Assembly: GCF_900112315.1 (NCBI RefSeq)
Contig: NZ_FOLL01000004.1
Coordinates: 1-64,000 of the forward strand
From: Parapedobacter composti
GTDB taxonomy: Bacteria; Bacteroidota; Bacteroidia; Sphingobacteriales; Sphingobacteriaceae
Length of the DNA: 64,000 nt
Direction: 5' to 3'
Shown here: positions 5,600 through 23,978 of the stretch, piece after piece
How positions within the stretch are numbered: position 1 is the first letter of the stretch
Layout: each line of letters opens with the position of its first letter
The notes under the pieces: generated by a model
The model's input: only the letters and a program-made list of their open reading frames with translations
Told to the model about the DNA's origin: nothing
Database searches by the model: none
Position numbers and translations under genes: made by a program

Positions 5600-5633
5600 A
5601 ATCAGTATAAAGGGTTTCTTGTGGTACCAGCTG
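5600..5633. repeat. attL, left 34-bp attachment repeat
   Basis: Identical over 34 bases to 23945-23978. It ends with the last 12 bases of the tRNA-Phe 3' end (in reverse orientation), so only a stub of the tRNA remains here. Confidence 0.92.
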
Positions 5634-5746
5634 TACCATAACAAGCATAAATTAAGATAAAATGTGTCCTGTTAAATCGCGCTATTAGATGTATTTAGGC
5701 TGATTGTGAAAAATATTAGCAAACCGAAACAAAGCAAAAACAAATC

Positions 5747-5790
5747 AAACCGACAACAGATTTTGATTTTGTTGTCGGTTGTTGTCGGTT
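5747..5790. promoter_or_regulatory. Putative integrase arm-binding sites, left end
   Basis: AACCGACAAC occurs at 5748-5757 and its inverse GTTGTCGGTT twice in tandem at 5771-5780 and 5781-5790, between attL and the integrase gene. The same 10-mer recurs twice just inside attR. Repeats of this kind near both ends are what integrase arm sites look like; they may also let the integrase control its own promoter. Confidence 0.65.
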
Positions 5791-5824
5791 TTACGTATAT
5801 TTGCTATGGTTAATATTTACAGCT

Positions 5825-7162
5825 ATGACAAGAAAGATCGTGACGGGTAATTTCCCCGTCAATGTCCGTTTCAATCTGCGAGCCACCAAGCCCGCTAACA
5901 AGGAGACAGCAATTAACTGCATCGTTCGGTTTAACAATGAGCGCCTGGTAATTTCGGGCGTGTCCAAGGTGCAGCCCAGGTACTGGAATGCCGAAAAGGG
6001 AATGCCCACCCAGCATGCGGGGAACGCTGACTCCGGGAAAATCCGTCAGAAGCTTCTCGACGCCGATAAAACCATCAATAGGATATTTGACGACTATGTG
6101 AACGAACACAACGCATTTCCGTGCGATTTAAAGGCGTTTCATGAACTTTTACGCCGCAGGGTATTCAATATACCCGACGAGGTGGAAAAACCCGAATTCG
6201 ACAACCTATTCGATTATCTGACCCATTTCATCATCCGGTGCGAAAAAGGGTTGAGGCTGAGCGATAAGGGACTGCCATTGACGGAAAGCAGCATCAAGAC
6301 TTATCGCACCATGCTTCGCAATGTAAAGATGTTCAGGGATGCCGGGAATGATGTGTCGTTCAATGCGCTTGGGCTTGAATTCTATGAGGATTACAGGGAG
6401 TTCTTAACGCTGACATTGAGGTATGGTGCCAATACGGTGGGCAAGCACCTGCGTACTCTCAAAGCTGTTGTAAATGAAGCAAGGGAGGATGGTTTCACCG
6501 CTGCAATATTCTCAGGCAAGAGATACAAGGTTAAAAACGAATCGGTTACTAACGTCTACCTCAACAAGGGCGAACTGCAAAGGATATGGGAGCTTGATCT
6601 ATCCGCAAACCCCACAACATTGGAACGGGCGAGGGACCTATTTATTATAGGGGCGAACACAGCGCTGCGATTTGGTGACTGGCTTAAGCTAGATCCAAGC
6701 CGGATGGTGGATGACATCATTGAAGTGAAGACGCAGAAAACGGGGGCTACCGTGGCTGTCCCGATTAATAGCATGGTAAAGGATGTCTTCGTCAAGTATT
6801 CGGATAGCCCGACCGGGTTGCCCAAGCCGATGACCAACCAGGAGCTTAACAGGTATATCAAGACAATAGCAAAGATGGCCAAGATTGACGAGCCGGTGGA
6901 GATCGAAAAGACCAAGGCCGGGAAGCGCATAACGGTCACCGTACCCAAGCATACCTTGGTGTCCAGCCATACAGCACGCCGCAGCGGTGCCACCAATATG
7001 TACATAGAAGGCATACCCACGCTTTCCATCATGAAGATAACGGGCCACACCACGGAGACCAACTTCATGAAATATATCAAACTGTCCGATAAGCAGCATG
7101 CACGCAAGGTATTGGAGGTCAGTAACCGTAAGAACCTGAAAGTAGTGGGAGGGGGGGAGTGA
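5825..7162 (+). CDS. int: Tyrosine recombinase / integrase
   Basis: The 445-residue enzyme would cut and rejoin attP with the tRNA-Phe target and, with a directionality factor, reverse the reaction. It has an N-terminal arm-binding region, a SAM-like core-binding domain (about residues 115-225) and the catalytic domain. Catalytic residues are visible: Arg282 in ANTALRFGDW, His382 and Arg385 in HTARR, His408 in ITGHTT and the nucleophile Tyr417 in MKYIKL. The architecture is that of Bacteroidota integrases with an Arm_DNA_bind_5-like start. The ATG at 5825 is preferred over the upstream TTG at 5801. The stop codon overlaps the start of the next gene. Confidence 0.95.
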   Translation: MTRKIVTGNFPVNVRFNLRATKPANKETAINCIVRFNNERLVISGVSKVQPRYWNAEKGMPTQHAGNADSGKIRQKLLDADKTINRIFDDYVNEHNAFPCDLKAFHELLRRRVFNIPDEVEKPEFDNLFDYLTHFIIRCEKGLRLSDKGLPLTESSIKTYRTMLRNVKMFRDAGNDVSFNALGLEFYEDYREFLTLTLRYGANTVGKHLRTLKAVVNEAREDGFTAAIFSGKRYKVKNESVTNVYLNKGELQRIWELDLSANPTTLERARDLFIIGANTALRFGDWLKLDPSRMVDDIIEVKTQKTGATVAVPINSMVKDVFVKYSDSPTGLPKPMTNQELNRYIKTIAKMAKIDEPVEIEKTKAGKRITVTVPKHTLVSSHTARRSGATNMYIEGIPTLSIMKITGHTTETNFMKYIKLSDKQHARKVLEVSNRKNLKVVGGGE

Positions 7163-8097
7163 TGCGGCCATATACATTTGAAGATTGGCTAAACAATAAG
7201 TTCGTTCATGAAAAAACGTGCTTCGATGTGGAATGCCTGAACGATAGTGAGAACTACTTAGAGCTAGTTCGGATGGGTAAAATGACCTATGACGTTTTAA
7301 ACCATATTCAAAGCGAACAAAACAAAGCATATTTGTTTATGATTAACTATACCCTTGAATCCTATAAGGCATTTTTTGAAAGTAAAAGATTAGTCTCTTT
7401 GGATTATAAAAAACTAATAGAGTTAAAGGTAGAAGCAATTGAACAGCTTTTCGAAAGGGAAAAAATTCTCTATACTGACGTAATTACGCCAAGAATGCAT
7501 CGTAAAATTAGATACGGAGCTAAATTTATAACATCCGACCAGTATAAAGGGTTTTTAAACGGACATTTGGACGCCAAATTTCCTCCTAGTTCTTCTTACT
7601 TTGGGAAAAACAGAATTAAGACACCAGATGGGCATGTGCGTATTGATAGTTACAGTTTGCCAATAGAAGATCAAACTGCTTATGCAAGAATGGAAGTACA
7701 AGTACTTTATCATAAATGGTTAAAAGATAAATTGTCAGAAGAGGTATCAAGTAACCATCAACAAGGCGATATTATCGACGAATCGGAAAACGAAAGTAAA
7801 ATAGGCGTAAAGGCATGGGCAATAGTATTTTATTATACTATGAGAGGTGACGAAATTAAAATAAGCGATGTTGAAGAATTTAAAACGAAACATAACTTAA
7901 AGTGCTCAACTGATAGTTTGAAAAATAAAATCTATTCCGTGCGAAAAGAAATAACCGAGGCGGCGCCTAAACGTTCAATTATTAGTCAGATAGAAAAAGC
8001 GATAGATGTTTTGAGGTTGTACTATCCAGGAAAAGTATGGAGTGCAGAAGATAGTTTAAGGGATATAAAGGTAGACATCGATCACCAAAGCAACTAG
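7162..8097 (+). CDS. AT-rich hypothetical protein coupled to the integrase
   Basis: The 311-residue protein begins at an ATG that shares one base with the integrase stop (TGATG), so translation is probably coupled. Its sequence is clearly more AT-rich than the integrase before it, which suggests a separate origin. No signal peptide or membrane segment is seen. The N-terminal two thirds are rich in Lys, Glu and Tyr and look helical; the C-terminal part (KIGVKAWAIVFYYTMRG and following) resembles a compact domain that I have seen only in proteins next to integrases of Bacteroidota elements. Function is unknown; control of integration and a cargo or exclusion role are both possible. Confidence 0.75.
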   Translation: MRPYTFEDWLNNKFVHEKTCFDVECLNDSENYLELVRMGKMTYDVLNHIQSEQNKAYLFMINYTLESYKAFFESKRLVSLDYKKLIELKVEAIEQLFEREKILYTDVITPRMHRKIRYGAKFITSDQYKGFLNGHLDAKFPPSSSYFGKNRIKTPDGHVRIDSYSLPIEDQTAYARMEVQVLYHKWLKDKLSEEVSSNHQQGDIIDESENESKIGVKAWAIVFYYTMRGDEIKISDVEEFKTKHNLKCSTDSLKNKIYSVRKEITEAAPKRSIISQIEKAIDVLRLYYPGKVWSAEDSLRDIKVDIDHQSN

Positions 8098-8161
8098 TAA
8101 TAAACATTTCTAAAATATAAATTTTTATCGTTGATTTTCAGCAGATTATAATTTTAATTTG

Positions 8162-8192
8162 TCAACAACCGGGTTAACAACTGGGTTGTTGA
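8162..8192. promoter_or_regulatory. Operator-like repeats upstream of excisionase-like gene
   Basis: TCAACAACC at 8162-8170 is inverted as GGTTGTTGA at 8184-8192. The interval can also be read as a 12-bp tandem repeat, AACAACCGGGTT (8164-8175) and AACAACTGGGTT (8176-8187). It lies 35 bases before the excisionase-like gene and is a good candidate for a regulator or excisionase binding site. Confidence 0.5.
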
Positions 8193-8226
8193 TTAGTTAC
8201 TTGCGGCCATTCTAAAACAAATAAGA

Positions 8227-8502
8227 ATGGAACAAGTAATGTTTAGCACTTCTCTCAGCAAGCTGGAGCCCATATTCAAAGGGTGGGTTAGAGAGGTCTT
8301 AGCTGAAAACAAAGTCGCCAGCGAACAGCCTAAACCGCCAGCCAGGCGTCAAGAGGCAGCCAAATTCTTAGGTTTATCCCTTCCAACTTTGGATACCTTA
8401 ATCAAGACTGGGCAAATAAAATCGTTTAGTATTGGCAGGCAGGTACGGATAGACTGGAAGGAGATAGAAGCCTTCTTAAATAAGAAAGGGGGGAGAGTAT
8501 GA
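8227..8502 (+). CDS. Excisionase-like helix-turn-helix protein
   Basis: The 91-residue protein has a MerR-like HTH_17 domain in its second half (RRQEAAKFLGLSLPTLDTLI, then SFSIGRQVRIDWKEIEAFL), the form found in small directionality factors and regulators of Bacteroidota mobile elements. Its place directly after the integrase block suggests a role in excision or in switching on the replication genes. Its stop overlaps the start of the next gene by four bases (ATGA). Confidence 0.75.
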   Translation: MEQVMFSTSLSKLEPIFKGWVREVLAENKVASEQPKPPARRQEAAKFLGLSLPTLDTLIKTGQIKSFSIGRQVRIDWKEIEAFLNKKGGRV

Positions 8503-8828
8503 CCCCGACCCCCAATAACTTTGTAAGTGACCAACGCAAAGTTAACCAAAAACCGCTTACAGTCCAAGAGATATTTCACCGGGCCAAGACCCAAAGAGCC
8601 AAACTCGTTATTGCATTGGAGCGAGCCGGAAGACCTTTGAGCATGCGCCAATTGGAATTGGCTACCGGAATAGAGCGCCCGACAATCTGCCGGAGGATTT
8701 CAGAATTGCAGGAATCCGGTTTGGTACGTATTGACCATTACGGAGTATGTACGATTTCAAGGTATCCAAAGGTAGGCTATTACGTAAACGTGAAAGGAGG
8801 TAGCCATGGGCAAGGAACACTCTTTTAA
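8499..8828 (+). CDS. Winged-helix DNA-binding protein
   Basis: The 109-residue protein contains a winged-helix fold in its middle: RPLSMRQLELATGIERPTIC followed by RRISELQESGLVRIDH. This is the DprA-WH/MarR-type layout used in phage regulators and replication accessory proteins. It overlaps the upstream HTH gene by four bases and the downstream replication gene by 23 bases, so the three are probably translated from one message. Confidence 0.7.
   Translation: MTPTPNNFVSDQRKVNQKPLTVQEIFHRAKTQRAKLVIALERAGRPLSMRQLELATGIERPTICRRISELQESGLVRIDHYGVCTISRYPKVGYYVNVKGGSHGQGTLF
8793..8801 (+). promoter_or_regulatory. Unusually strong Shine-Dalgarno sequence
   Basis: AAAGGAGGT lies four bases before the ATG at 8806. 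Such complete anti-16S complementarity is uncommon in Bacteroidota genes and supports this start for the replication protein. Confidence 0.7.
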
Positions 8829-9534
8829 TGTTGACGTAGCCAAAGAGTTCGGCATTCCGGCAGCTATAATTCTAAAAAACATCGCTTTTTGGATTGAGAA
8901 GAACGTTGCTAACGGGAAGAATCAATTTGACGGCCGCACATGGACTTACAATAGCTACAAAGCATGGCATGCACTATTCCCGTATTTATCGCAAAAGCAA
9001 TTACGAACCACGCTAAATAAGCTTGTCGAAAAAGGTGTCTTACTGAAAGGCAATTTCAATCAAAGTACTTACGATAGAACTAATTGGTATGCCTTTGCCG
9101 ATGAAAACCTATGGATGCAGACCCATTGCCCAAATGGGCAAATGGAGCGGACCAAGGGGGCAAATCAAACTGCCCAAGAGGGCGAACCTATACCAGATAG
9201 TAAACAGTTAATAAACTCAGATGGTATTGATGCCACGAAACCTGCGGTTTCTTTGGCCGATCGACAAAAAGCTTTTGGTAGGTCGTTGGAACCTTATGTG
9301 TCCAAGTACGGTGCAAAAATGATACGTGACTTTTACGAATACTGGACAGAACCCAACAAGCCTCAAACCAAATTCCGCCAAGAGCTTGAAAAGACGTGGG
9401 ATACTGCACGCCGCTTAAGAACTTGGTCCGACAACGATAGCAGAAGATTGCCAAAAAGCCAGTTTCCGAAGAATGCAACGGATGGCAGGAACCTTACCAA
9501 CATGTTTAACGACGCAATAGCATCAGGATACTAA
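8806..9534 (+). CDS. Phage replication initiator-like protein (N-terminal winged helix)
   Basis: The 242-residue protein starts with a domain found at the N-terminus of phage replisome organisers: FNVDVAKEFGIPAAIILKNI, then WTYNSYKAWHALFPYLSQKQ and LRTTLNKLVEKGVLLKG. A linker rich in Gln, Thr and Pro follows, and the C-terminal half (FYEYWTEPNKPQTKFRQELE) resembles the tail of DnaD/O-like proteins that contact the helicase loader or helicase. It is immediately followed by an ATPase of the DnaB/RepA class, which fits a role in opening the element's origin and recruiting the helicase. The strong ribosome-binding site fixes the start. Confidence 0.75.
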   Translation: MGKEHSFNVDVAKEFGIPAAIILKNIAFWIEKNVANGKNQFDGRTWTYNSYKAWHALFPYLSQKQLRTTLNKLVEKGVLLKGNFNQSTYDRTNWYAFADENLWMQTHCPNGQMERTKGANQTAQEGEPIPDSKQLINSDGIDATKPAVSLADRQKAFGRSLEPYVSKYGAKMIRDFYEYWTEPNKPQTKFRQELEKTWDTARRLRTWSDNDSRRLPKSQFPKNATDGRNLTNMFNDAIASGY

Positions 9535-9535
9535 A

Positions 9536-10534
9536 ATGAAGGTTATACGCATATCTGATTACGTTGACTCGGTGATGGATCATCATAAGACCGGCACGCA
9601 ACACGGAGCAAAGACCGGTTTTAAGTGCCTCGATGAGCTTATAAGCTTCAAACTTGGCTACAGCACCTACATCCTTGGTTTCGCAGCTGCCGGTAAGACC
9701 GAATTGCATTTTGAGCTGTTGATGAACCTATCTGCTAAATACGGGTGGAAACATGGGCTTCTTAGTGCTGAGGTAGGCGAGACCAAAGACGTGATAGCTG
9801 AACTTATCAAGAAGTATGTGCGCAAACCTTTCTTTGAAAGTGACCCTTACCATGCATCGGAAAAAGAAATATACCAGGCAATTAATTACCTCGACGAACA
9901 TTTCTTCATTGCCCCAAGTGAAAAAGACTGGAACGTACAATCGATATACGAATATTTTAAGGCGATTGAGAAAGAAAACGACATTAAACTACAAACAACC
10001 AGCATAGACCCTTGGAATGATCTCGATGAGAATTTAGTTGATTTCGGGGGGCGTGAGGACAAATACCTTACCCATGCGCTTAAACATAGCCGGCAGGTTG
10101 CCGCTGCAAATAATTGGCACAACTTCATCATCACCCATGCAGCGAACATGCCGCCATTGGTCATGAAGTCTGTAACCGGCGGGGAAATCTATAATACGGC
10201 GGTGCCCACACTGCAAAGTTTTGCCGGCGGACAGGTTTGGGGGCGCAGGGCCATGAACGTACTTGGCTTATGGAGACCGAAGCGCGGCACGATAGATCCG
10301 CAAAGCGGGATGCCATTTGCAGACAACGAGGTCAGGCTTCTTGTATTGAAATCAAAACCGAAAGGCAGCGGAAAGGAAGGCAGTTGCAGCATCTATTGGG
10401 ATTGGAAATCGAACAGGTATTATGAGAAGATTGGCGGCATGGATTTCTATGCGTTTGGTCACGAAGACAACAAAAGTTATTTGCAACCATCAATTGATTT
10501 TTATGATGCAGAGAAGGAAGAACCGGTATTCTGA
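9536..10534 (+). CDS. DnaB/RepA-like replicative helicase ATPase
   Basis: The 332-residue protein has a RecA-type fold with a Walker A motif GFAAAGKTE (residues 48-56) and a probable Walker B with Asp158 in TTSIDPW. Positions such as LLSAEVGETKDVIAEL and FIITHAANMPP match the C-terminal helicase domain of DnaB and of RepA-like ATPases, but the N-terminal primase-binding domain of DnaB is missing. It most likely unwinds the origin or loads host DnaB during replication of the element. It begins one base after the initiator-like gene. Confidence 0.8.
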   Translation: MKVIRISDYVDSVMDHHKTGTQHGAKTGFKCLDELISFKLGYSTYILGFAAAGKTELHFELLMNLSAKYGWKHGLLSAEVGETKDVIAELIKKYVRKPFFESDPYHASEKEIYQAINYLDEHFFIAPSEKDWNVQSIYEYFKAIEKENDIKLQTTSIDPWNDLDENLVDFGGREDKYLTHALKHSRQVAAANNWHNFIITHAANMPPLVMKSVTGGEIYNTAVPTLQSFAGGQVWGRRAMNVLGLWRPKRGTIDPQSGMPFADNEVRLLVLKSKPKGSGKEGSCSIYWDWKSNRYYEKIGGMDFYAFGHEDNKSYLQPSIDFYDAEKEEPVF

Positions 10535-10892: not shown

Positions 10893-11182
10893 ACCCATGG
10901 GCCAAGGCACTATCGATATTGAAAAAATTGAAGCCGGGCCAGTGGCTGAAAGTCCGGGATGTCGCTAAGCACAATCCTGAATTTTTTAAGGAGATAGTGA
11001 AACAGTTGATTCGGGCGGGATGGAGTGAGTACGAGTTCAATGGAGAGTATACAGAAATACGAAGGCTTGATTTGCCGGATTACGCCAGGGCATATTACCG
11101 AGTAGAAGGGGATACTAACGATGTTATAAATAAAGCACGTTTTGAAAACAACAAAAAAGTACAAAATGGCGAGAGGGCTTAA
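10823..11182 (+). CDS. Hypothetical protein of the replication module
   Basis: Reading from the ATG at 10823 gives 119 residues; a later ATG at 10877 (start MGSGVDPWAKAL) would give 101. The first start has a purine-rich stretch, GGGGAGA, 16 bases to 10 bases before it. The central part, LKPGQWLKVRDVAKHNPEFF, looks like a small helical DNA-binding or adaptor domain, but I cannot name a family. It overlaps the coiled-coil gene, as is common in dense phage modules. Confidence 0.55.
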   Translation: MEAKIPGSGTATGSNTQGMGSGVDPWAKALSILKKLKPGQWLKVRDVAKHNPEFFKEIVKQLIRAGWSEYEFNGEYTEIRRLDLPDYARAYYRVEGDTNDVINKARFENNKKVQNGERA

Positions 11183-11234
11183 AAAGGGAATGACAAAAAC
11201 CTGATAAAACTTGACAAAAGTTAACATTTGAGCG

Positions 11235-11330
11235 ATGACAGACAGGCAAAAAAATTCATCCGTACTGGATGAAAGGCATCAAAGAGGGTTTATTTCAGCG
11301 ATGAGAAAGATGACATGGCAAACGCTATAA
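11235..11330 (+). CDS. Possible very short gene (31 codons)
   Basis: An ATG at 11235 opens a 31-codon frame ending at 11330, with a basic, hydrophilic product. It contains a perfect 7-bp hairpin (TTCATCC / GGATGAA, 11255-11273). Nothing else supports translation; the interval 11183-11399 may simply be a leader for the tail genes. Confidence 0.2.
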   Translation: MTDRQKNSSVLDERHQRGFISAMRKMTWQTL

Positions 11331-11399
11331 AATTTGGCCGTAGTTTAAACCACTGAAAAATTATCAATTAAATTGGCAAGATAACAACAACGATAAATC

Positions 11400-11633
11400 A
11401 TGGAACACTTAGAAAGGACAATTGACATAGAATCAAAGGCAACTAAGACGAATTTCATTGAAAGAAATAACGAAGAGATAGTAACCGCTTTCGAAGCATT
11501 GAATATGGGAGGAAAAATTCGTTTCCTAAGCGATCTCCTGGAGAGCGAAGCAAAAATCCTAAACATCGACCGTGATGGATCCGGAAACGTCAGATTTGTG
11601 GTGAATAATGACAATTACATAAAATTGAAATAG
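11400..11633 (+). CDS. Small acidic hypothetical protein
   Basis: The 77-residue product has a helical N-terminal half (IERNNEEIVTAFEALNMGGK) and a short beta-rich end (GSGNVRFVVNNDNYIKLK). It stands two bases before the 792-aa tail protein gene, so the two are probably cotranscribed. No family was recognised. Confidence 0.6.
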   Translation: MEHLERTIDIESKATKTNFIERNNEEIVTAFEALNMGGKIRFLSDLLESEAKILNIDRDGSGNVRFVVNNDNYIKLK

Positions 11634-11635
11634 AA

Positions 11636-14014: not shown

Positions 14015-14048
14015 AATAAGTCGAACCAACAGGATATAAAAAAAAGAT

Positions 14049-14633: not shown

Positions 14634-14690
14634 CTGTTTGTAGCAATTGAACAATAACCATCGCAATTATAAAAATAGGAGACAGAAAAC

Positions 14691-17600: not shown

Positions 17601-18206
17601 GGTAAGGATGTAATTGGATTATTGGGGAATACCATTATCGACTCATTCAGCGGGATAACAATGAACGTTGTGTCAAACAAGCTACAGAAACACCTCGATG
17701 AATCATTTGACAATCTTGGGAAAGGCTTAAGTGAGAATACCGGAAAATGGCTACAGATCGGCATCCTTGGAGCCGGGTTAGTAGGACAAGGTGTATCAGG
17801 AGTTTCTTCACGCACCAATTCCGGGACTCAAGCGGTGGGTGGGCTATTGAAAGGAGCAGCAGCCGGGGCTTCTTTCGGATCCGTTGTTCCTGTGATTGGA
17901 ACAGCCGTTGGTGCCGCTGTAGGCGCAGTTATAGGTGGGATAGCGGGGTGGCTTGGTGGCGAGTCAGCAAAGAAGCAGGAAAAACTAACCGAGCAGCAGC
18001 TAGAGGAACAGCGTAAGCAAACAGCCTTGATGGAGCGGCGTAACGCCCTTTCCTACACATCACAAATCATAGGTCAGCAGACCAATCAGGGTTTGGTAAC
18101 CGGGGTTGACCGTGACGAGTTCGGAAACATTCGATTCAGGATTGAGGGACGGGATTTGGTGGCGTCATTGGCAAGGACTGACATAGGAATAGGGAGGGGC
18201 GTATAG
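14691..18206 (+). CDS. Phage tail tape measure protein
   Basis: The 1171-residue protein sets the length of a phage tail and probably takes part in DNA ejection. It starts with long coiled-coil helices (about residues 1-230), followed by the TP901-type core (about 262-440, with VISTNVKISDSIADVQRTAE and GTAISKLIGQLV). Further helices follow, and a Gly/Ala-rich hydrophobic stretch lies near residues 1053-1090, typical of tape measures. With about 0.15 nm per residue the tail would be near 175 nm. No tail tube or sheath gene accompanies it in the element. A preceding purine-rich AATAGGAGACAG acts as ribosome-binding site. Confidence 0.92.
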   Translation: MARLEVGIGATNKELKSVLADSQTLVRNFSNNLQKINLNIGVNDRISKRIGDTRQSLRSLASTAKEVRGIKIDLTLGNAINDLKSLNTQLAQTKKLYGDIRTVIQSINSTGRATVGGAGSKQALEAEKLALAQARTEAQRYKNEIARVNTELANLRLANAQARQSTTAAAGSYREAQQRLTALGRAIREQAGGFNANNAAVKAQIAEYRKLNGQLKEFDALMGNRQRNVGNYPLGGLGGQLKGLIGTYASLYAVMRGAGAVISTNVKISDSIADVQRTAELSKDEVKGLVTELKSIPTRTGLNELLSIATIGGQLGIAKDELGGFVQALDFLGVALANEIPGGAAVVAESLGKINGVFRVAETQGLTAGQAMQKTGSAILALGQAGLATGQFLVDFTQRVGGAARTTGIALPTILAYGAVLEEAGVSAEVAGTAISKLIGQLVAKRQDFHAIAQIADSTLTLKQFTGLINTDADAALRKFFAGLAAGGKTTTQFYDILNSAGIKTERYRNAVLLLSQDQEKLTKLTALSTKEYNTGEKAAEQFAIRNLNLAGVLQQLGRRFTEAFVNSEAQGAIAQWLGQMTGLIREGDVLISKLGEVRASFSEQSAEINKLIDRYGDLIIKKNRTHKESEELKSVVNQVAQILPSAVTEWDKYGNALSISIDRVHNLSRAHQQLVKDMNISTAKQLNEDFNEVIKRAERYQRAINKMAESNKKGFTDWRTGTKGTLDNFRQWLAETNSEALKIAQNLQSIGAELTQEQRNLLAYYGLDEAGEAMRKYDASVKNTTASVKGLGEALQGVNGDGSNTTGKGGVKASEKAILTLEKLTQLRENAHLETLTGWEKELQASKYRWDKELNDAKDSIEQQIELRKYQAAETARILKDVGMETSSGRVVLKSEPAALKGLTRQLNLGLGEVVPQDWSRQIAEKFKEVNAPNLDWSEFSNGLKRVTNQFTRNMMGAIEQIGGMTEKKGKDVIGLLGNTIIDSFSGITMNVVSNKLQKHLDESFDNLGKGLSENTGKWLQIGILGAGLVGQGVSGVSSRTNSGTQAVGGLLKGAAAGASFGSVVPVIGTAVGAAVGAVIGGIAGWLGGESAKKQEKLTEQQLEEQRKQTALMERRNALSYTSQIIGQQTNQGLVTGVDRDEFGNIRFRIEGRDLVASLARTDIGIGRGV

Positions 18207-18265
18207 TTGGCAACAAAATCTGTTTTTTCCTTGCGAATACCGAAAATATTCCCCATTTTTGATAT

Positions 18266-18381
18266 GCGAACTAGTCTTGGAGCAATCCAAGCAATTTATT
18301 TACTAACGATAAGCCCGGCGATCGGTTGCAAGTACCGAACTTTCTCTCTTCGAGACTAGTTCGCAGCGACCGGGCGTTTTT
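18266..18381 (+). terminator. Structured terminator or leader RNA after tape measure gene
   Basis: A perfect 12-bp inverted repeat, GCGAACTAGTCT (18266-18277) and AGACTAGTTCGC (18353-18364), encloses 75 bases. Inside, GCCCGG (18313-18318) can pair with CCGGGC (18370-18375) beyond the first stem, followed by five T residues. The stems either exclude one another or form a pseudoknot. A third hairpin, TCGGT / ACCGA (18322-18338), sits in the loop. The second stem with its T run is a plausible terminator of the tail operon. Confidence 0.6.
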
Positions 18382-18395
18382 AAATCTATTTAGAC

Positions 18396-18644
18396 ATGGA
18401 AAAATGTCATCTAACCAATGGGGCTGCGAATCCCACAACCAATCAACATCAGGGTATTGACCCTAAAATCAGCAGGCAATTGGCCGAGATGGGATTTCGA
18501 TCCTATCAAGCAGACGGAGGTTTCACCATCCACGAAAGGGACATTGGTACTATGGGTAAGATAGTAGTGTTCTATCCCAAATTCATGCAGTTGGTGATAG
18601 GCAGTGGCGGAGTACTTCATCTAACCAGCCAACAATCCCAATGA
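18396..18644 (+). CDS. Small hypothetical protein
   Basis: The 82-residue product starts 15 bases after the structured terminator region. It has a mixed fold with the hydrophobic end MGKIVVFYPKFMQLVIG. No family, signal or membrane segment was recognised. It is the first of four short genes on the same strand up to the terminator at 19911. Confidence 0.5.
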   Translation: MEKCHLTNGAANPTTNQHQGIDPKISRQLAEMGFRSYQADGGFTIHERDIGTMGKIVVFYPKFMQLVIGSGGVLHLTSQQSQ

Positions 18645-18742
18645 TCAGCAATCTTGTACTGATGTTCAGTGCTAAAAACGAGGTCAACAGTAAAATTATT
18701 AACCGCGGTGTAGCAAGTTGCTGCATCAAAATTTGAAAAGAA

Positions 18743-19105
18743 ATGGAAACTACAATCAAACTTGAAGTAAAACAAGAGGTTGCTCCAATCGTAGAGCAAA
18801 TCGCCGAATTTGTCAATTCAGTTATCGACCCAAAGCAGTTAGCTGACAACCTCGATGAGGTGCTTTGCCTTTACGCCCAGGCTATCGCTAAATATCCAGA
18901 GGGACAAGAAATTTACGTATCCAACGATCATGTGGACAACGTATGGGCATTGAAAGAATTGATACGCCTGTTAAGGGGTGGCCAGGTCTGGCTGAGTGAT
19001 GCCCTTGTGCAAAGGAACGCAGATTTTGCTGATGCATTGAGGATAATGCAGAAATACCTCATCGAGGGCAACAATAAATCATATCCATCAACCAATTCAA
19101 AATAA
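18743..19105 (+). CDS. Small acidic helical hypothetical protein
   Basis: The 120-residue product is acidic and mostly helical, with a pattern of Val, Leu and Ile suited to a coiled coil or helical bundle (EVAPIVEQIAEFVNSVIDPK). It is followed four bases later by the next small gene. No family was recognised; a structural accessory or anti-host role is possible but not shown. Confidence 0.6.
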   Translation: METTIKLEVKQEVAPIVEQIAEFVNSVIDPKQLADNLDEVLCLYAQAIAKYPEGQEIYVSNDHVDNVWALKELIRLLRGGQVWLSDALVQRNADFADALRIMQKYLIEGNNKSYPSTNSK

Positions 19106-19109
19106 AGCC

Positions 19110-19457
19110 ATGGCAACATACACGAAACCCGCAGACGGCAGGTACCTCATCGAATTGAATGAGGGTGAGGTATCCTATTTGAGTGAATTGTTCGATAGCC
19201 TTTTGGATGACAATTACAAGAATCGCTCAAATGATATGTCAAACATGAAATCAATGTTCGATGCAGCTTGCAAGGAAACGCCGCACCTGACCAAGGCTTA
19301 CGCGGACACCATGAACAGCATAAACGAGACTTTTTTCATCCTTGCCGACAACAAGGAAACGATAAGGGAAATGTTTAACCTGTTCACGGGTATTTACAGA
19401 ACACATATCCATAAATGTAAAACCAACAAACAACAAGACTATGAACTATCCAAATGA
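19110..19457 (+). CDS. Small acidic helical hypothetical protein
   Basis: The 115-residue protein is hydrophilic and helical (LIELNEGEVSYLSELFDSLL, DTMNSINETFFILADNKETI). It lies four bases after the preceding gene and overlaps the following one by 17 bases, so the group is probably one operon. No family was recognised. Confidence 0.6.
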   Translation: MATYTKPADGRYLIELNEGEVSYLSELFDSLLDDNYKNRSNDMSNMKSMFDAACKETPHLTKAYADTMNSINETFFILADNKETIREMFNLFTGIYRTHIHKCKTNKQQDYELSK

Positions 19458-19887
19458 CTTTTTGACTGCCGAGTGGTTGGATGACGAAGATAAGGCAAAA
19501 TTGATGGCAGTGTACAGCACAGTGCGCTGTAGGGATGTTATCGGACAAGCGCTTCAAATGCTATATTTTGACAAACCTAACTCCAGCCCGTTTGATTATG
19601 GTACATTGGTCAGGCTTGTGATTCGGGCCTGTTCGTTAGAGCCTGTCAAAAGGCTAATCGGGAACGATGAAAGAGTACAGGAGGCGCTTGATTTGCTGGA
19701 CAATATGTTGACGTTCTTTGATATTTTAAACGGAGACGATTTCCATACGCTCCTGTCAATTGACAAGGCATGCCAATACGGAGATGATCAGGGACGATAT
19801 TCGCCGGCGATAGACAGGCTTTTCATCGAGACGAAAAGCACCCTGGAGCACAGATTGAAATCTATGGAATTGAAACCCGCGTCCTGA
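19441..19887 (+). CDS. Small acidic helical hypothetical protein
   Basis: The 148-residue protein is acidic and helical throughout, with no known motif. It overlaps the upstream gene by 17 bases and is followed by a clear terminator, so it is the last gene of the operon that starts near 18396. Confidence 0.6.
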   Translation: MNYPNDFLTAEWLDDEDKAKLMAVYSTVRCRDVIGQALQMLYFDKPNSSPFDYGTLVRLVIRACSLEPVKRLIGNDERVQEALDLLDNMLTFFDILNGDDFHTLLSIDKACQYGDDQGRYSPAIDRLFIETKSTLEHRLKSMELKPAS

Positions 19888-19910
19888 ACCGTTTACAACA
19901 GTCACAATTA

Positions 19911-19936
19911 GCCTCGGTTTCCGCCGGGGCTTTTTT
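19911..19936 (+). terminator. Rho-independent terminator
   Basis: GCCTCGG and CCGGGGC pair around a six-base loop, followed by six T residues. It ends the operon of small genes. Confidence 0.85.
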
Positions 19937-19959
19937 GTTAAATCAACAATAACCAGCCA

Positions 19960-20157
19960 ATGCGCGTTGTTTCGATAAAAGCATGGCTTGTACGGGCCCA
20001 ATTGTCTATAACATCAGTAACCATATCTCTTGGCAGTGAAACCTATTTGGAGTTGAAATACGAAATATCGGGTGAAAATCTGGTGTTGGAAGGGACACTT
20101 TCGGAATATTGGGGATATTTCGCAAATGTAAAATACCGCCTAAGAAAAAGATTATAA
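19960..20157 (+). CDS. Small hypothetical protein
   Basis: A 65-codon frame starts at an ATG 24 bases after the terminator. The product is basic and beta-rich (ITSVTISLGSETYLELKYEI). No family was recognised. Confidence 0.45.
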   Translation: MRVVSIKAWLVRAQLSITSVTISLGSETYLELKYEISGENLVLEGTLSEYWGYFANVKYRLRKRL

Positions 20158-20167
20158 ATACAAATAC

Positions 20168-20230
20168 AATATTCTAATATTCAGCATCTTAAAAAGTTAG
20201 GAATATTTTTTTACAAAAAAGTGGAATATT
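20168..20230. promoter_or_regulatory. Operator-like array of AATATTC motifs
   Basis: AATATTC stands at 20168-20174 and 20176-20182, and its inverse GAATATT at 20201-20207 and 20224-20230; the last two sit inside a longer repeat, GGAATATTTTTT. The interval is AT-rich, non-coding and upstream of two related HTH genes, so it may be their control region. The rest of 20158-20459 shows no gene. Confidence 0.45.
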
Positions 20231-20459
20231 TTTTCGCGTTTTGGAAAACACACTTTTACGCAGAAAATATGCGCACTAATTCAAGATATTTATGCGTTAG
20301 ACATTTTTGCTGCACAAGTACATTTGTTGAAAAACAAAATGCCTTTTTATCAGTCTGTTGCGAGATTAATCAGCCTTGAGATCACATAAAATAGCATTTG
20401 CACAACTAGCTTCCGAAATACCAAGCTCATTAAAGCGTTTAGATTGTAAAAGTGAACTC

Positions 20460-20759
20460 ATGGAAAGAATACCATTTGACGACCTGCCCAATGAGGTAGC
20501 ATTACTGAGGCAGGAAATAGCTGAACTTAAGGCTATCGTAAAGGATAAGCTTACCACACCGGAAGGCTACGAGCCGGACGTAACCATGACGCCAGACCAG
20601 GTTGCAGAATACTTGGGGTGTACCGTCCAGAATGTTCATGACAAAAAGAACAAGGGAACATTGCCATATTACAAGATTGGACGGAAGGTATTCTTCAAGA
20701 AAAAGGACGTAGACGCAGCCACTAAGGTTAAGAGCTATAAGCGTAAATTTTTCCATTAA
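20460..20759 (+). CDS. HTH_17 DNA-binding protein, first of a tandem pair
   Basis: From the ATG at 20460 the product has 99 residues: a short coiled coil (EVALLRQEIAELKAIVKDKL), the linker TTPEGYEPD, and an excisionase-type HTH_17 domain (MTPDQVAEYLGCTVQNVHDK, then GTLPYYKIGRKVFFKKKDV). It ends in the basic tail YKRKFFH. The next gene is a close paralogue with the same order of parts. The coiled coil suggests dimers, perhaps mixed dimers of the two proteins. A longer frame from a TTG at 20376 is not favoured. Confidence 0.75.
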   Translation: MERIPFDDLPNEVALLRQEIAELKAIVKDKLTTPEGYEPDVTMTPDQVAEYLGCTVQNVHDKKNKGTLPYYKIGRKVFFKKKDVDAATKVKSYKRKFFH

Positions 20760-20797
20760 TATCCATAGCAGACCATTTGAAATTCGAACACATCCCT

Positions 20798-21070
20798 ATG
20801 TTGCTCTCTGAATTGACGAACGAAATCAAAGAGCTAAAAGCGATAGTAGAGAATAAACTGACTACAACACCGGAAGGTTACGAACCGGACACCACTATGG
20901 ACGTTCAAGAGGCCGCCGAATACCTAAGGTGTACGCCGGACAATGTTTACAAAAAGGTGAGAAGCGGAAGCCTTCCACATTATCGTAACGGCAAGCTTAT
21001 CCTTTTCAAAAAGAAAGAATTGGATGAAGCAATAAAGGTTAAACCTTATAAACGTAAGTTTTTTAAATAA
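20798..21070 (+). CDS. HTH_17 DNA-binding protein, second of a tandem pair
   Basis: The 90-residue product from the ATG at 20798 repeats the plan of the gene before it: ELTNEIKELKAIVENKLTTT, PEGYEPD, an HTH_17 domain (MDVQEAAEYLRCTPDNVYKK, GSLPHYRNGKLILFKKKEL), and the end YKRKFFK. The pair clearly arose by tandem duplication. A TTG at 20777 would add seven residues. It ends at the start of the terminase small subunit remnant. Confidence 0.75.
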   Translation: MLLSELTNEIKELKAIVENKLTTTPEGYEPDTTMDVQEAAEYLRCTPDNVYKKVRSGSLPHYRNGKLILFKKKELDEAIKVKPYKRKFFK

Positions 21071-21237
21071 CCGATAAGCAGAAACGATTTTGTGAGGAAT
21101 ATCTTGTTGATTTGAATGCAACACAGGCAGCTATTCGCGCTGGTTATAGCGAAAACACCGCTAAAGAGATCGCTTACGAAAACCTCACATACAGGAATAT
21201 ATACAAGGTCGCCAAAAGCAGCTTCAAAATAGGCTAA
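21067..21237 (+). pseudogene. Terminase small subunit remnant
   Basis: The frame reads TDKQKRFCEEYLVDLNATQA and then AIRAGYSENTAKEIAYENL, an unmistakable match to the N-terminal HTH of phage terminase small subunits (Terminase_2), which bind the packaging site. After about 40 residues the similarity stops and the frame ends at 21237. There is no normal start codon: the frame opens with ATA directly after a stop and overlaps the preceding gene. It is therefore a fragment of a packaging gene and shows that the element, or its ancestor, was linked to DNA packaging. Confidence 0.8.
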
Positions 21238-21254
21238 ATATAACACACGAAAAG

Positions 21255-21298
21255 GCAGTTTGAACCTGACAAAACCTGACATTCAAACTGCGCTTTTT
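21255..21298 (+). terminator. Rho-independent terminator
   Basis: GCAGTTTGAA (21255-21264) and TTCAAACTGC (21282-21291) pair perfectly around a loop holding CCTGACA twice; five T residues follow. It ends transcription from the regulator pair. Confidence 0.85.
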
Positions 21299-21319
21299 CG
21301 GTCGGGTGGAGAAATGTGA

Positions 21320-21366
21320 AGCCTTAGCGAAGCAGTACGCGCGCGCGCGAGGGGTTCGGTAAGGCT
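21320..21366. repeat. Inverted repeat enclosing a (CG)6 tract
   Basis: AGCCTTAGCGAA (21320-21331) is inverted as TTCGGTAAGGCT (21355-21366) with one mismatch; the loop contains twelve bases of alternating CG (21338-21349). Confidence 0.7.
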
Positions 21367-21683
21367 CAATGCGAATTGACTACACATCAATGGAACGTTT
21401 TATAACTACATGAATGAGAACTTTAAACGCAAAAATTTCTCACTATCTGTTCGAGCGCGTAATATGGCGACAAATATTGATGATGGTCATTACGTGTGCG
21501 TGTTAAAAAAGTGAGGCGTTTTCTGACGCTACAAAATGTTGTCATGAATTTTTGGAGTCCATAAAAAAGGGGATCGAATTATGTTTGGCGCGCCGGGACC
21601 TATTGGTTGAAGGTTTACAATAGTTTACATTTTAGGACTTCATAGACCGCATTTAAGAACGTGGAAGATTTTTTCCAAGTCAT

Positions 21684-21695
21684 TACGCGCGCGTA
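21684..21695. repeat. Perfect palindrome TACGCGCGCGTA
   Basis: A 12-bp perfect palindrome of alternating purines and pyrimidines in the same non-coding region. Confidence 0.7.
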
Positions 21696-21804
21696 TTTCT
21701 CTTTTGACCATTTGGTCATGAAAGTACCTCACGCAAAAAAATTCGGAACCTAATACCCAAGCTATCAATAAAACCATTTAATTTGTATAACTAAAAAAGC
21801 AATC

Positions 21805-22425
21805 ATGAACCATAATTACAAATACGTATTATCAATACTGATATTGTTGACAGCTGTTGTCACCGCCAAGGCTCAAAAGCATTACGTGTGGTGTCCCGAC
21901 GAGGTTGAGGTAAAGTCAAGGACTGGAATGGCGGAGGGTGCTGAGGTGGGCCTTGTGGTCTACGACGGACGCGTGATCAGCAAGAAGGGGAAAATAGAAT
22001 GTAGCAGCGAGGAAGTTACCAGCGCAATTGCACAATTATTAGAAAAGGTTTATCCGTCCATCCGCTTTGTTATCCTCAATGAGTCGGCATACTACAAACA
22101 AGCGACTGATGATAGGCCCACTTTAAAAATCGGGCTATCGGCCTATCATGCCGGATTTGGTGTCGATGTTTCCACCGGAGTTGGAATAGTTGGAGGGAGT
22201 TTTGCTGCTATGGCATTCCCAAAAGGAGAATGGAACGCGGCCACGGCAATCTATCTGCAATTTGAGGACGGCGAAACCTCAACGGAGAAGGAAATTTCTA
22301 ATGTGGCGTCACGCCCCAATATGCTTGGATATAAGAGTGCGCGTAAAGGCTTGCAAGAATCTTATGAGAAATCAATTCAGCAATTGCTGTTCTTCTTGGA
22401 TAAAGAGCTTGCAAAGATTCAATGA
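21805..22425 (+). CDS. Exported hypothetical protein, cargo of the element
   Basis: The 206-residue protein has a clear Sec signal peptide (YVLSILILLTAVVTAKAQ), with cleavage expected after AKA near residue 23, so it acts in the periplasm or outside. The mature part has one central Gly-rich stretch (GVDVSTGVGIVGGSFAAMAF) and ends in a charged helix. No family was recognised. An exported protein near the right end of a phage-like element could alter the envelope, for example to block superinfection, but this is a guess from position. Confidence 0.7.
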   Translation: MNHNYKYVLSILILLTAVVTAKAQKHYVWCPDEVEVKSRTGMAEGAEVGLVVYDGRVISKKGKIECSSEEVTSAIAQLLEKVYPSIRFVILNESAYYKQATDDRPTLKIGLSAYHAGFGVDVSTGVGIVGGSFAAMAFPKGEWNAATAIYLQFEDGETSTEKEISNVASRPNMLGYKSARKGLQESYEKSIQQLLFFLDKELAKIQ

Positions 22426-22482
22426 TTTTAAATCTATGGAACTAAAAGAGTCACTGATTTACCAATGTTGTTTTATTTTAGA

Positions 22483-22944
22483 TTACTCTTTTATATCTAC
22501 TGACGTGTAAGGAATAGTCGGAAGATTGCCTGATTCTTTATGGTTCAAAGTGAAAATCAACTGCTTTTTGTCTTCAGTATATGTGACTATATAATGATTA
22601 CCCTCTCTAATACATTCATATACCTTTTTAAATATTGCGGCTTTAAAATCATCGGTGATGTTGGAGGACCCCAAAGAGCCAGATTTAGGATGTACAAACA
22701 TAAGATACACAGCGTTATCTTTAATGACCAACAGGCAGTATACCCTATATCCACCCCTTCCGCACAATCTCTTTTTTATGTATGGGACTTCAGCAGATCC
22801 ATTTAGCCTGGTGCCTGTGCATAATTGCTCTGGCGTTTTGTCAAAAAAAGCCTCAATCACACATTTCGTGATGTTTTTATAGGTACTTTTAGAAACAAGT
22901 TTTTCAAACTCGCTCTTGAAATCTTCGAGACATCTTACCTCCAT
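22483..22944 (-). CDS. RelE/HigB-like toxin candidate
   Basis: The 153-residue protein carries, in its middle, KKRLCGRGGYRVYCLLVIKD followed by NAVYLMFVHPKSGS and a C-terminal helix, which follows the core pattern of RelE/HigB-type ribosome-dependent RNases (basic R-G-GYRV strand, then hydrophobic strands and a helix with Lys). About 60 extra residues precede this core. The start ATG shares one base with the stop of the upstream gene (TGATG), the usual coupling of toxin-antitoxin pairs. It is AT-rich compared with the element's tail genes. Catalytic residues cannot be named with certainty. Confidence 0.5.
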   Translation of the reverse strand: MEVRCLEDFKSEFEKLVSKSTYKNITKCVIEAFFDKTPEQLCTGTRLNGSAEVPYIKKRLCGRGGYRVYCLLVIKDNAVYLMFVHPKSGSLGSSNITDDFKAAIFKKVYECIREGNHYIVTYTEDKKQLIFTLNHKESGNLPTIPYTSVDIKE

Positions 22945-23408
22945 CACAACAAAGTAAGTTGCCTCGTTATTTCGGTGAATCCGGGCTGGTTTGGCAAATT
23001 GAAATAGATTGACTCCAAGTCTTGAGCAAGCTCCCTCAAATCGTCTACTGCTTCATTAAACCGTTCGGTTTCCTCGGTGACGTAGTTCGTGCCACCAATA
23101 ACTCCAAACCCTTCGTAATTTTTCTTTAGCATTCTGCATAAATCTCTTGCAGCTGCTATCAATTCATTCATCATCCGCAGTGATGTCTCATCAAACGGTT
23201 CGTTACTCCATGTTATCTTTTCTATCCGCTCATTCAATTGCTCGATTTGAGCAGCCTTATCAGACAAAATCTTCTTTAGATCAAGAATATGATCCAATAC
23301 AGAATTTATAAGAGCTTCAGTATTGTTGGTTTTTTCCTTGTATGAAGCATCTTTAACGGCATTAACTGTATCAAACAGCTTTTCTTGTTTTTGTTCCGCG
23401 CACTCCAT
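22944..23408 (-). CDS. Coiled-coil protein, candidate antitoxin partner
   Basis: The 154-residue, acidic and helical protein is encoded directly upstream of the RelE/HigB-like gene and coupled to it. It has a central coiled coil (ILSDKAAQIEQLNERIEKIT) and no HTH or other known antitoxin DNA-binding motif, which is unusual for partners of HigB-type toxins. The ATG at 23408 is favoured over one at 23459 because a promoter lies between 23431 and 23460. Confidence 0.55.
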   Translation of the reverse strand: MECAEQKQEKLFDTVNAVKDASYKEKTNNTEALINSVLDHILDLKKILSDKAAQIEQLNERIEKITWSNEPFDETSLRMMNELIAAARDLCRMLKKNYEGFGVIGGTNYVTEETERFNEAVDDLRELAQDLESIYFNLPNQPGFTEITRQLTLL

Positions 23409-23430
23409 AGTATAATAAATCGGTTGCCAA

Positions 23431-23460
23431 CAAATGTAATAACAAATTTGATACTTCAAA
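23431..23460 (-). promoter_or_regulatory. Promoter of the toxin-antitoxin-like operon
   Basis: On the - strand TTTG (23460-23457) is followed after 18 bases by TACATTTG (23438-23431), a close match to the Bacteroidota vegetative promoter. The first start codon lies 23 bases further on. Confidence 0.65.
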
Positions 23461-23787
23461 TATGCTATAACAAAATTGTTGTCATTTTTGATAAGTATAT
23501 AATATAAACAGAGTTAAACGAAAAAGGTTTAACGCCGCTTTTTTTTATTAAACAAAACCCACCAACTGAATGACGGGGTTAAGTGAGTTTTAGTAGGAAT
23601 CGCCGACCTTCCGATTACCTATTTTGAAAAATACCATGACTATATCTCGGAAATGCAATCTTATTGCATTAATAGTCAACATATTGTAACTAATTGATTA
23701 TCAGATTTTTTAGGAATTAACAACAAGAATGAAAGCGTATTATTTGTTGATATACAGATATTTAAGTTGTCTTCCATTATGGAAAAA
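23461..23787. other. AT-rich non-coding stretch
   Basis: No gene is seen on either strand between the toxin-antitoxin-like promoter and the terminator at 23788. Confidence 0.5.
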
Positions 23788-23822
23788 CAAAACCCCGTCC
23801 GGCTGGAAGGGGTTTTGTTTTT
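23788..23822. terminator. Bidirectional terminator inside right end of the element
   Basis: CAAAACCCC (23788-23796) and GGGGTTTTG (23809-23817) pair perfectly; five A residues precede and five T residues follow. Stem and loop resemble the inverse of the terminator at 5564-5596 on the other side of the element. Confidence 0.8.
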
Positions 23823-23898
23823 CGGTTAAAATTTACAGCCTCACGGCCTTGCTCCAAAGATACGGAATTATTGCCGGAAAATCGACCTTATCTAATCA

Positions 23899-23920
23899 AA
23901 CCGACAACGAAACCGACAAC
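23899..23920. promoter_or_regulatory. Putative integrase arm-binding sites, right end
   Basis: AACCGACAAC occurs at 23899-23908 and 23911-23920, 25 bases inside attR. The longer context AATCAAACCGACAAC is shared with the left copy near 5744. Confidence 0.65.
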
Positions 23921-23928
23921 ACAAAACG

Positions 23929-23962
23929 AAAAAAACCCTCATACAATCAGTATAAAGGGTTT
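23929..23962 (-). terminator. Terminator of tRNA-Phe completed by the element
   Basis: On the - strand AAACCCT (from 23962) pairs with AGGGTTT (ending at 23933), followed by seven T residues. The first arm lies in the attachment repeat and the second arm in element DNA. Confidence 0.75.
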
Positions 23963-23978
23963 CTTGTGGTACCAGCTG
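23945..23978. repeat. attR, right 34-bp attachment repeat
   Basis: Identical to 5600-5633. Its last 12 bases form the 3' end of tRNA-Phe, so integration leaves the tRNA gene whole at this end. Confidence 0.92.

What the first reader, a model, noticed from the sequence alone, without database searches (positions are those of the whole stretch)
5600..23978. Tail-bearing, capsid-less integrative element: candidate new type of phage satellite
Between the two att repeats I see an integrase, excisionase-like HTH, winged-helix initiator, DnaB/RepA-like ATPase, a 1171-aa tape measure, a probable tail-tip protein, small genes and cargo, but no large terminase, portal, capsid, tube, sheath or lysis gene. 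A tape measure cannot make a tail alone, so the element is either the remains of a prophage or a satellite that brings its own tail-length and tail-tip proteins and borrows capsid, tube and packaging from a helper. Known satellites usually carry capsid-changing or packaging genes; a tail-changing one would alter host range. The compact, overlapping, intact genes argue against simple decay.
Basis: partly seen in the sequence, partly recalled or inferred. Interest (0 to 1): 0.8.

Follow-up and report, generated by a model that had tools for sequence, protein, structure and literature searches.

The report
Capsid-less mobile element carrying tail genes
An 18-kb mobile DNA element in a Bacteroidota bacterium keeps two phage tail genes but no recognisable head or packaging-motor genes, and a relative in a second species looks the same, so it is probably a phage parasite that builds part-own, part-stolen tails, as recently shown for a cholera phage parasite.

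Summary
The element is real: exact 34-bp repeats at 5600-5633 and 23945-23978 (the right one overlapping tRNA-Phe), an adjacent tyrosine integrase, and arm-like sites (AACCGACAAC x5) only at its two ends. It holds replication genes, a 1171-aa tape measure protein (TMP) and a 792-aa tail hub/tip protein. No terminase large subunit, portal, capsid, tube or lysis gene was recognised, and the four ORFs above 312 aa are all assigned. A second copy in Parapedobacter soli (18.3-kb contig, different site) lacks the same block, has other replication genes and a shortened small terminase gene. TMP and hub are 75% and 73% identical between the copies although synonymous sites are near saturation, so selection kept both. 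Other TMP relatives reach at most 50%, over part of the protein. I read this as a helper-dependent satellite lineage making chimeric tails, as published in 2026 for the Vibrio PLE satellites; so not new in kind, though a Bacteroidota case would be new to the literature I searched. Against: two broken small-terminase remnants in the window copy, only two members, no known helper, no evidence of transfer. Side finding: a pseudoknotted leader RNA (18265-18375), found in 20 of 251 family genomes and not in Rfam.

The parts
5600..5633 (.). attL, 34 bp exact copy of attR
5748..5790 (.). three AACCGACAAC arm-like sites next to the integrase gene
   Evidence: 5 sites in 64 kb, all at the element ends; 0 of 100 shuffles reach 5; three such sites also beside the P. 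soli integrase
5801..7162 (+). tyrosine integrase (first Met at 5825)
   Evidence: PF00589 and PF13102; 41% to the P. soli copy
7159..8097 (+). 312-aa ORF, unknown; a 317-aa ORF without BLAST similarity sits at the same place in P. soli
8227..8502 (+). HTH_17, excisionase-like
   Evidence: 53% to P. soli
8499..8828 (+). winged-helix MarR-like regulator
8806..9534 (+). replication initiation protein
   Evidence: PHROG 11233 1e-39
9536..10534 (+). helicase-like ATPase
   Evidence: PHROG 5482 2e-42, PHROG 239 (DNA primase/helicase) 8e-20
11166..11196 (+). remnant of a DUF5681-like gene (first ten codons)
   Evidence: 90% over 48 bp to the P. soli gene, whose PF18932 matches are below the curated cut-off
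11197..11262 (.). block 64/67 identical to P. soli around the dead small-terminase start: candidate packaging or other cis site
   Evidence: fourfold-degenerate sites 36% identical
11235..11330 (+). small terminase remnant, 31 codons
   Evidence: P. soli homologue PF03592 1.4e-17
11400..11633 (+). 77-aa ORF preceding the tail genes in both copies
   Evidence: 50% over 46 aa to P. soli; no match to tail chaperone candidates
11636..14014 (+). tail hub/tip protein, 792 aa (by synteny and homology, no structure)
   Evidence: 73% to P. soli; homologue follows the TMP in P. soli, G228, G231 and L060; PHROG 23570 virion structural protein; structural proteins of 8 Cellulophaga phage records
14049..14633 (+). 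194-aa ORF, unknown, not found in the P. soli contig
14691..18206 (+). tail tape measure protein, 1171 aa
   Evidence: TIGR01760 1.1e-19, PF10145, PHROG 25337; 74% to P. soli
18265..18375 (+). pseudoknotted leader RNA upstream of the 82-aa ORF
18396..18644 (+). 82-aa ORF shared with P. soli
18743..19105 (+). 120-aa ORF shared with P. soli
19110..19457 (+). 115-aa ORF shared with P. soli
19441..19887 (+). 148-aa ORF; 2 of 399 family genomes, both these elements
20376..20759 (+). HTH_17 regulator (first Met 20460 by alignment to P. soli)
20777..21070 (+). HTH_17 regulator
21067..21237 (+). second small-terminase remnant: no start codon, similarity continues in another frame
21434..21793 (.). stretch without assigned gene, 69% identical to P. 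soli
21805..23459 (.). cargo-like ORFs of 206 (+), 154 (-) and 171 (-) aa, no assigned function; the P. soli contig ends before this region
23899..23920 (+). two AACCGACAAC arm-like sites at the right end
23945..23978 (.). attR, overlapping the 3' end of tRNA-Phe (23966-24039, minus strand)

Best explanation
The stretch 5600-23978 is an integrated, helper-dependent phage satellite of a capsid-less lineage. It integrates at tRNA-Phe with its own tyrosine integrase and HTH excisionase-like proteins and replicates with its own initiator and helicase-like ATPase (inferred from family matches). It supplies its own tape measure and tail hub. A siphophage helper supplies capsid, portal, large terminase, tail tube and lysis, so that virions carrying the element have chimeric tails (inferred by analogy with the published PLE case). 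The P. soli copy still has a shortened small terminase protein; in the window copy that gene is broken, and packaging would rely on the helper recognising a site, possibly 11197-11262 (inferred). Shown here: element boundaries, gene content, missing block, a second copy with the same missing block at another site, purifying selection on both tail genes. Not shown: excision, helper, particles, transfer.
For: att repeat at tRNA-Phe and arm-like sites at both ends. Second copy in P. soli: integrase, HTH, 77-aa-like ORF, TMP, hub, 82/120/115/148-aa ORFs and HTH in the same arrangement apart from TMP/hub order, no recognised TerL/portal/capsid, other replication genes; it is not beside that strain's tRNA-Phe, whose contig shows none of its element genes in 19.9 kb. 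TMP 75% and hub 73% identical, with pS 0.76 and 0.73 (saturated) and pN 0.175 and 0.190; both ORFs open in both copies. The 148-aa gene occurs in 2 of 399 family genomes, both capsid-less elements. The hub occurs in 2 of 9 held genus genomes. PF03592 N-terminal half without TerL in P. soli. Conserved block 64/67 where fourfold sites are 36% identical. Published precedent for TMP plus hub in a satellite (PMC12987554).
Against: Two small-terminase remnants and a DUF5681-like remnant show that the window copy has lost genes. Only two members known. The P. soli contig is cut near the element's right end, so its att site was not seen (inferred). No tail chaperone recognised (one weak PHROG match of the 120-aa ORF, E 0.034). 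No resident helper recognised with TerL profiles phrog_2 and phrog_38, and phrog_2 missed the TerL of the G228:C6 prophage, so that search is incomplete. PHROG files the hub's family under head and packaging. Other short stretches are as conserved as 11197-11262, e.g. 59/60 at the start of the 82-aa ORF. Independent deletions from two related prophages cannot be excluded.
Confidence: 0.55

Rival explanations
1. Two related temperate siphophages each lost the terminase-to-tube block by independent deletion; both elements are dying prophages whose tail genes have not yet decayed.
For: Small-terminase and DUF5681-like remnants in the window copy and a shortened small terminase in P. soli; a relative with TerS, TerL, portal, MCP and tube upstream of TMP and hub exists (G228).
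Against: The same block is missing in both known copies, and the order small-terminase remnant - 77/109-aa ORF - tail genes is shared; the 148-aa gene was found in no other genome of 399; the best other TMP relatives are 44-48% over about half the protein (G262, head genes not scanned) or 50% over 152 residues (G126).
Confidence: 0.27
2. The element is a mobile island that uses TMP and hub as decoys or poison subunits to spoil tail assembly of incoming phages; it is not packaged itself.
For: Tail assembly interference is a known defence theme (Tai, PMC11364771; Rta, PMC12987554; passages read).
Against: Tai and Rta are dedicated inhibitors and not TMP or hub proteins; the P. soli copy has a small-terminase domain; PADLOC gave only weak matches (best LmuB, 4e-4, 171-aa ORF).
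Confidence: 0.1
3. The missing head and packaging genes lie elsewhere in the same genome (split prophage).
For: The window genome is in 61 contigs and P. soli in about 180, so parts could be apart.
Against: No phrog_38 TerL in either genome, and only weak short phrog_2 matches of the kind seen in all 12 genomes searched; no temperate phage split in this way is known to me (recalled).
Confidence: 0.04

Closest known systems
PLE satellites of Vibrio cholerae, chimeric tails (PMC12987554, passages read)
   Same: Satellite with its own TMP and tail/baseplate hub that takes the capsid from a phage; the hypothesised mechanism is the same.
   Different: Host phylum; TMP of the TP901 type in a siphophage-like setting instead of a contractile tail; no Rta-like gene or tail chaperone recognised here; no known helper; transfer untested. 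No PLE sequence was compared.
PICI, including SaPI (features recalled; starts of abstracts)
   Same: Integrase, own replication initiator, size, and in the P. soli copy a small terminase without a large one.
   Different: Carries tail structural genes; the small terminase is truncated or dead; no capsid-size gene recognised.
cf-PICI (Alqurainy et al. 2023, seen only as a citation and in the passages)
   Same: Satellite that brings one half of the virion and takes the other; some carry putative tmp genes according to PMC12987554.
   Different: cf-PICI bring capsids and steal tails; here the other half is carried.
Sphingobacteriaceae siphoprophage of the G228 type (also G231, L060 by ORF layout only)
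   Same: Homologous TMP and hub genes in tandem.
   Different: G228 carries TerS, TerL, portal, head morphogenesis, MCP and major tail protein upstream of TMP; hub identity about 30-35%.

Membership tests
Phage satellite (general) | Integrative element with own integrase and replication genes, lacking a complete virion gene set | tested here: met
Phage satellite (general) | Induced and packaged by a helper phage | not testable with these tools
   needs an experiment; no helper known
Phage satellite (general) | Recurs as a lineage without capsid genes | tested here: inconclusive
   two copies, both lacking the block; n = 2
PLE-type chimeric-tail satellite | Encodes TMP and hub | tested here: met
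   TMP by family models; hub by synteny and homology only
PLE-type chimeric-tail satellite | Encodes a tail assembly chaperone | tested here: inconclusive
   no match of the 77/109-aa or 194-aa ORF to chaperone candidates of related phages (1-3 sequences per profile); 120-aa ORF to a chaperone PHROG at E 0.034
PLE-type chimeric-tail satellite | Common descent with PLE genes | not tested
   no PLE sequence was compared
PICI | Own terminase small subunit redirecting packaging (recalled) | tested here: not met
   window copy: two remnants only; P. soli: 86-aa protein with the N-terminal part (1-60 of 141) of PF03592
cf-PICI | Encodes own capsid genes | tested here: not met
Complete temperate siphophage | TerL, portal, MCP, tube | tested here: not met

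The most novel reading that the evidence does not exclude
A Bacteroidota satellite lineage, unrelated to PLE and cf-PICI, that evolved tail replacement independently: it discards capsid, packaging motor and tube but keeps tape measure and hub, so that tail length and receptor specificity of its particles are set by the satellite and not by the helper.
Probability: 0.45. Interest if true: 0.75.

Novelty: new variant of a known kind. Interest (0 to 1): 0.6.

Why it matters
If true, chimeric-tail piracy is not confined to the cases shown so far but has arisen in another phylum, and a satellite could set the tail length and host range of its own particles independently of its helper. My searches of the held library listed no satellite family from Bacteroidota (listings only, and a large satellite survey was not held). 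The leader RNA found beside the tail genes is a candidate new regulatory RNA family with a testable start-codon switch.

Tried and rejected
Structure prediction of the hub (pLDDT 31) and of the 148-aa protein (pLDDT 48) failed, probably for lack of relatives, so no fold searches were run and hidden folds are not excluded at fold level. Scans of viral contigs with the 82-aa and 120-aa pairs found no relative; tblastn of the 120-aa protein in plasmids and of the 148-aa protein in phages found none. Exact search in viral contigs of 50 bases of the conserved block and of a 22-nt RNA core: none. The conserved region as DNA in 399 family genomes: the two elements plus short marginal matches in four others. 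Empty-site comparison: tRNA-Phe and its right flank were found in all nine genus genomes, but the left flank of the window was not found next to it in the 2.4-39.8 kb fetched for eight genomes, so no clean empty site was shown. Considered and rejected: tailocin (no tube or sheath gene recognised); gene transfer agent (no head genes). phrog_2 as a TerL test was too unspecific (matches in 13 of 14 control genomes and in 12 of 12 searched) and missed the G228:C6 TerL, so phrog_38 was added.
Full report
1. Boundaries. The reported repeat is real: 34 identical bases at 5600-5633 and 23945-23978, the right copy overlapping a tRNA-Phe gene on the minus strand, 23966-24039. A tyrosine integrase begins just inside the left repeat. 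The decamer AACCGACAAC occurs five times in the 64-kb window, all at the two ends of the element (5748-5790 and 23899-23920); none of 100 shuffles reached five. The same decamer occurs three times beside the integrase gene of the relative described below. I take these as integrase arm sites (inference).

2. Content. Family scans give integrase, HTH_17, MarR-like winged helix, replication initiator (PHROG 11233, 1e-39), helicase-like ATPase (PHROG 5482, 2e-42), tape measure (TIGR01760 1.1e-19; PF10145 6e-10; PHROG 25337 2.4e-37) and a virion structural protein (PHROG 23570, 5e-13, residues 4-132; labelled head and packaging). The TMP also matches 50 phage records, none over 80% of its length; the hub matches structural proteins of 8 Cellulophaga phage records at 24-30% over 16-30% of its length. 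Of 22 ORFs considered, 20 were scanned with Pfam and 20 with PHROGs; none matched TerL, portal, capsid, tube, sheath or lysis families convincingly. The weak matches were: 120-aa ORF to a tail assembly chaperone family, E 0.034; HTH protein to a small terminase family, 0.22; 171-aa ORF to a spanin family, 0.47. The ORFs above 312 aa are integrase, ATPase, hub and TMP, so TerL and portal are absent by size as well. Small tail or head proteins could hide among the unknown ORFs: both structure predictions were unusable (pLDDT 31 and 48).

3. The relative. Of 301 genomes of the family, 38 have a TMP match; apart from the window genome, one same-genus genome (G003) matches over the full length at 74%, and the other matches are partial, at most 50% identical. 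A contig of the same length, 18,329 bases, with a 70% hub match is titled Parapedobacter soli KCTC 12984 Scaffold74; I treat G003 as that strain and the window as a Parapedobacter (inference). In the same orientation the P. soli contig carries integrase (41%), HTH (53%), an ORF like the 77-aa ORF (50% over 46 aa), TMP (74%), hub (70% by BLAST, 73% in the alignment), the 82/120/115/148-aa ORFs (44-64% by BLAST) and an HTH protein (71%). The replication initiators show no BLAST similarity to each other, although both match PHROGs 270, 428 and 678; no counterpart of the ATPase was found in P. soli. No TerL, portal or capsid gene was recognised in P. soli: ten of its ORFs were scanned with PHROGs and six with Pfam, and its ORFs above 320 aa are integrase, initiator, TMP and hub. 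TMP precedes hub in P. soli; the window has hub, a 194-aa ORF, then TMP. The P. soli element is not beside that strain's tRNA-Phe: 19.9 kb there show none of its element genes (the one match is between its second recombinase and another recombinase), so the two copies sit at different sites.

4. Selection. Between the two copies pS is 0.76 (TMP) and 0.73 (hub), near saturation, while pN is 0.175 and 0.190; both ORFs are open in both copies. At fourfold-degenerate sites the identity is 36% pooled over TMP, hub and integrase, not far above random. So both proteins were under purifying selection through most of the time since the copies split. If the ancestor already lacked capsid genes, this means a use for TMP and hub in a capsid-less element. 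If each copy was deleted separately and recently, it says nothing about satellites. For the first: the same block is missing in both; small-terminase remnant, 77/109-aa ORF and tail genes follow each other in both; and the 148-aa gene was found in 2 of 399 family genomes, both being these elements. For the second: only two copies are known, and both show terminase damage.

5. Terminase remnants. P. soli has an 86-aa protein matching positions 1-60 of 141 of PF03592; it has matches in 17 of 251 family genomes, its two best apart from itself lying in open frames of 244 and 260 codons. In the window the same gene is cut to 31 codons at 11235-11330, preceded by the first ten codons of a DUF5681-like gene (11166). 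A second small-terminase fragment, without start codon and continuing in another frame, follows the last HTH gene at 21067-21237. This contradicts 'intact genes' and is the main evidence for decay. Around the first remnant, 64 of 67 aligned positions (11197-11262) are identical to P. soli; no 67-nt window of the TMP, hub or integrase codon alignments reaches 64 (best 62). It is not the only such patch: 59 of 60 positions at the start of the 82-aa ORF and 51 in a row at the start of an HTH gene are identical too. I read the block as a candidate packaging or other cis site; a recent exchange between the copies is an alternative.

6. Capsid-bearing relatives. The G228 locus has TerS (PHROG 606), TerL (PHROG 38), portal (PHROG 12), head morphogenesis, major head protein (PHROG 10) and major tail protein (PHROG 1407), followed by TMP and hub. 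G231 (L055) and an IMG/VR contig (L060) show a similar ORF layout but were not scanned. Hub identities to the window are about 30-32% for G228 and 33% for G231 and L060. A search of 300 genomes of the order with the hub alignment gave 18 genomes; only G003 is close. TerL in the window genome and P. soli: phrog_38 none (one of 9 genus genomes, G093, weak, E 1e-3); phrog_2 gives only weak short matches of the kind that the searched genomes share, apart from G057 and G228. So no resident helper was recognised, with incomplete sensitivity.

7. Comparison with the literature. The present element would be another case, apparently unrelated (no PLE sequence was compared). My searches for satellites in Bacteroidota listed none (listings only; PMC11389934 passages).

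8. Site use. tRNA-Phe and its right flank were found in all nine genus genomes. Two other genomes (G093, G028) have AACCGACAAC sites beside the tRNA without the element genes in the 39 kb examined, compatible with older integrations at the same site (inference).

9. Leader RNA (side finding). Between TMP and the 82-aa ORF, at 18265-18375, lies a structured RNA. Window and P. soli keep all 18 pairs of a 12-bp stem P1 and a 6-bp pseudoknot P2, with six double-sided changes. A model built from the two finds matches in 20 of 251 family genomes, the two elements included, and in 2 of 59 phylum genomes, both of this family. On 31 aligned copies P1 and a hairpin have 96% standard pairs against 68% in shuffles; 13 of 16 pairs have changes on both sides (shuffled mean 10.7); the alignment was fitted to the model, which leans towards it. 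P2 of at least 5 bp can form in 30 of 31; with partners dealt among sequences the mean is 19.5 and the maximum 24. In 25 of 31 copies the P1 3' strand is complementary to at least 10 of 11 bases running from the G of the downstream start codon; the dealt control gives mean 1.2, maximum 5. The two alternative helices are close in energy (mean -17.1 and -18.0 kcal/mol over 26 copies). This looks like a start-codon switch (inference). Of 10 downstream proteins scanned, two are SymE-toxin-like and one RadC-like. In the window and P. soli the start-codon complement is missing. Rfam has no match there nor on the RNA in the eight of twenty other loci scanned, and one paper search listed nothing fitting.

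10. Verdict. Real element; capsid-less by sequence tests; most likely a satellite lineage with tail genes (0.55), else decaying prophages (0.27). Novelty: variant of a known kind.

Noticed in passing
window 18265-18375; L152-L171 (20 loci): Candidate new leader RNA family: 12-bp stem P1 plus pseudoknot P2 with covariation, in 20 of 251 Sphingobacteriaceae genomes; 6 of the 20 loci fetched hold more than one copy. In 25 of 31 copies the P1 3' strand is complementary to the start codon region of the downstream gene (control mean 1.2 of 31), suggesting a start-codon switch; 3 of 10 downstream proteins scanned are SymE- or RadC-like.
   Followed up: partly
window 11197-11262: Block 64/67 identical to P. 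soli although fourfold sites are near saturation and the overlapping small terminase gene is dead in the window: candidate cos/pac site.
   Followed up: partly
L105/L110 (G093), L104/L112 (G028) beside tRNA-Phe: AACCGACAAC arm-like sites beside tRNA-Phe without the element genes within 39 kb, possible scars of earlier integrations.
   Followed up: partly
L035:17476-18249 (+): A second, different tyrosine recombinase gene lies beyond the integrase end of the P. soli element, suggesting neighbouring mobile DNA.
   Followed up: no
L163:3107-3174: Flavo-1 RNA match below gathering score (35.1 against 42) about 230 bases upstream of two tandem copies of the leader RNA.
   Followed up: no
L062 (G057:C16:172734-173957): A same-genus genome holds a large-terminase match (phrog_2, 2.4e-43) interrupted by two stop codons, probably a decayed prophage.
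   Followed up: no
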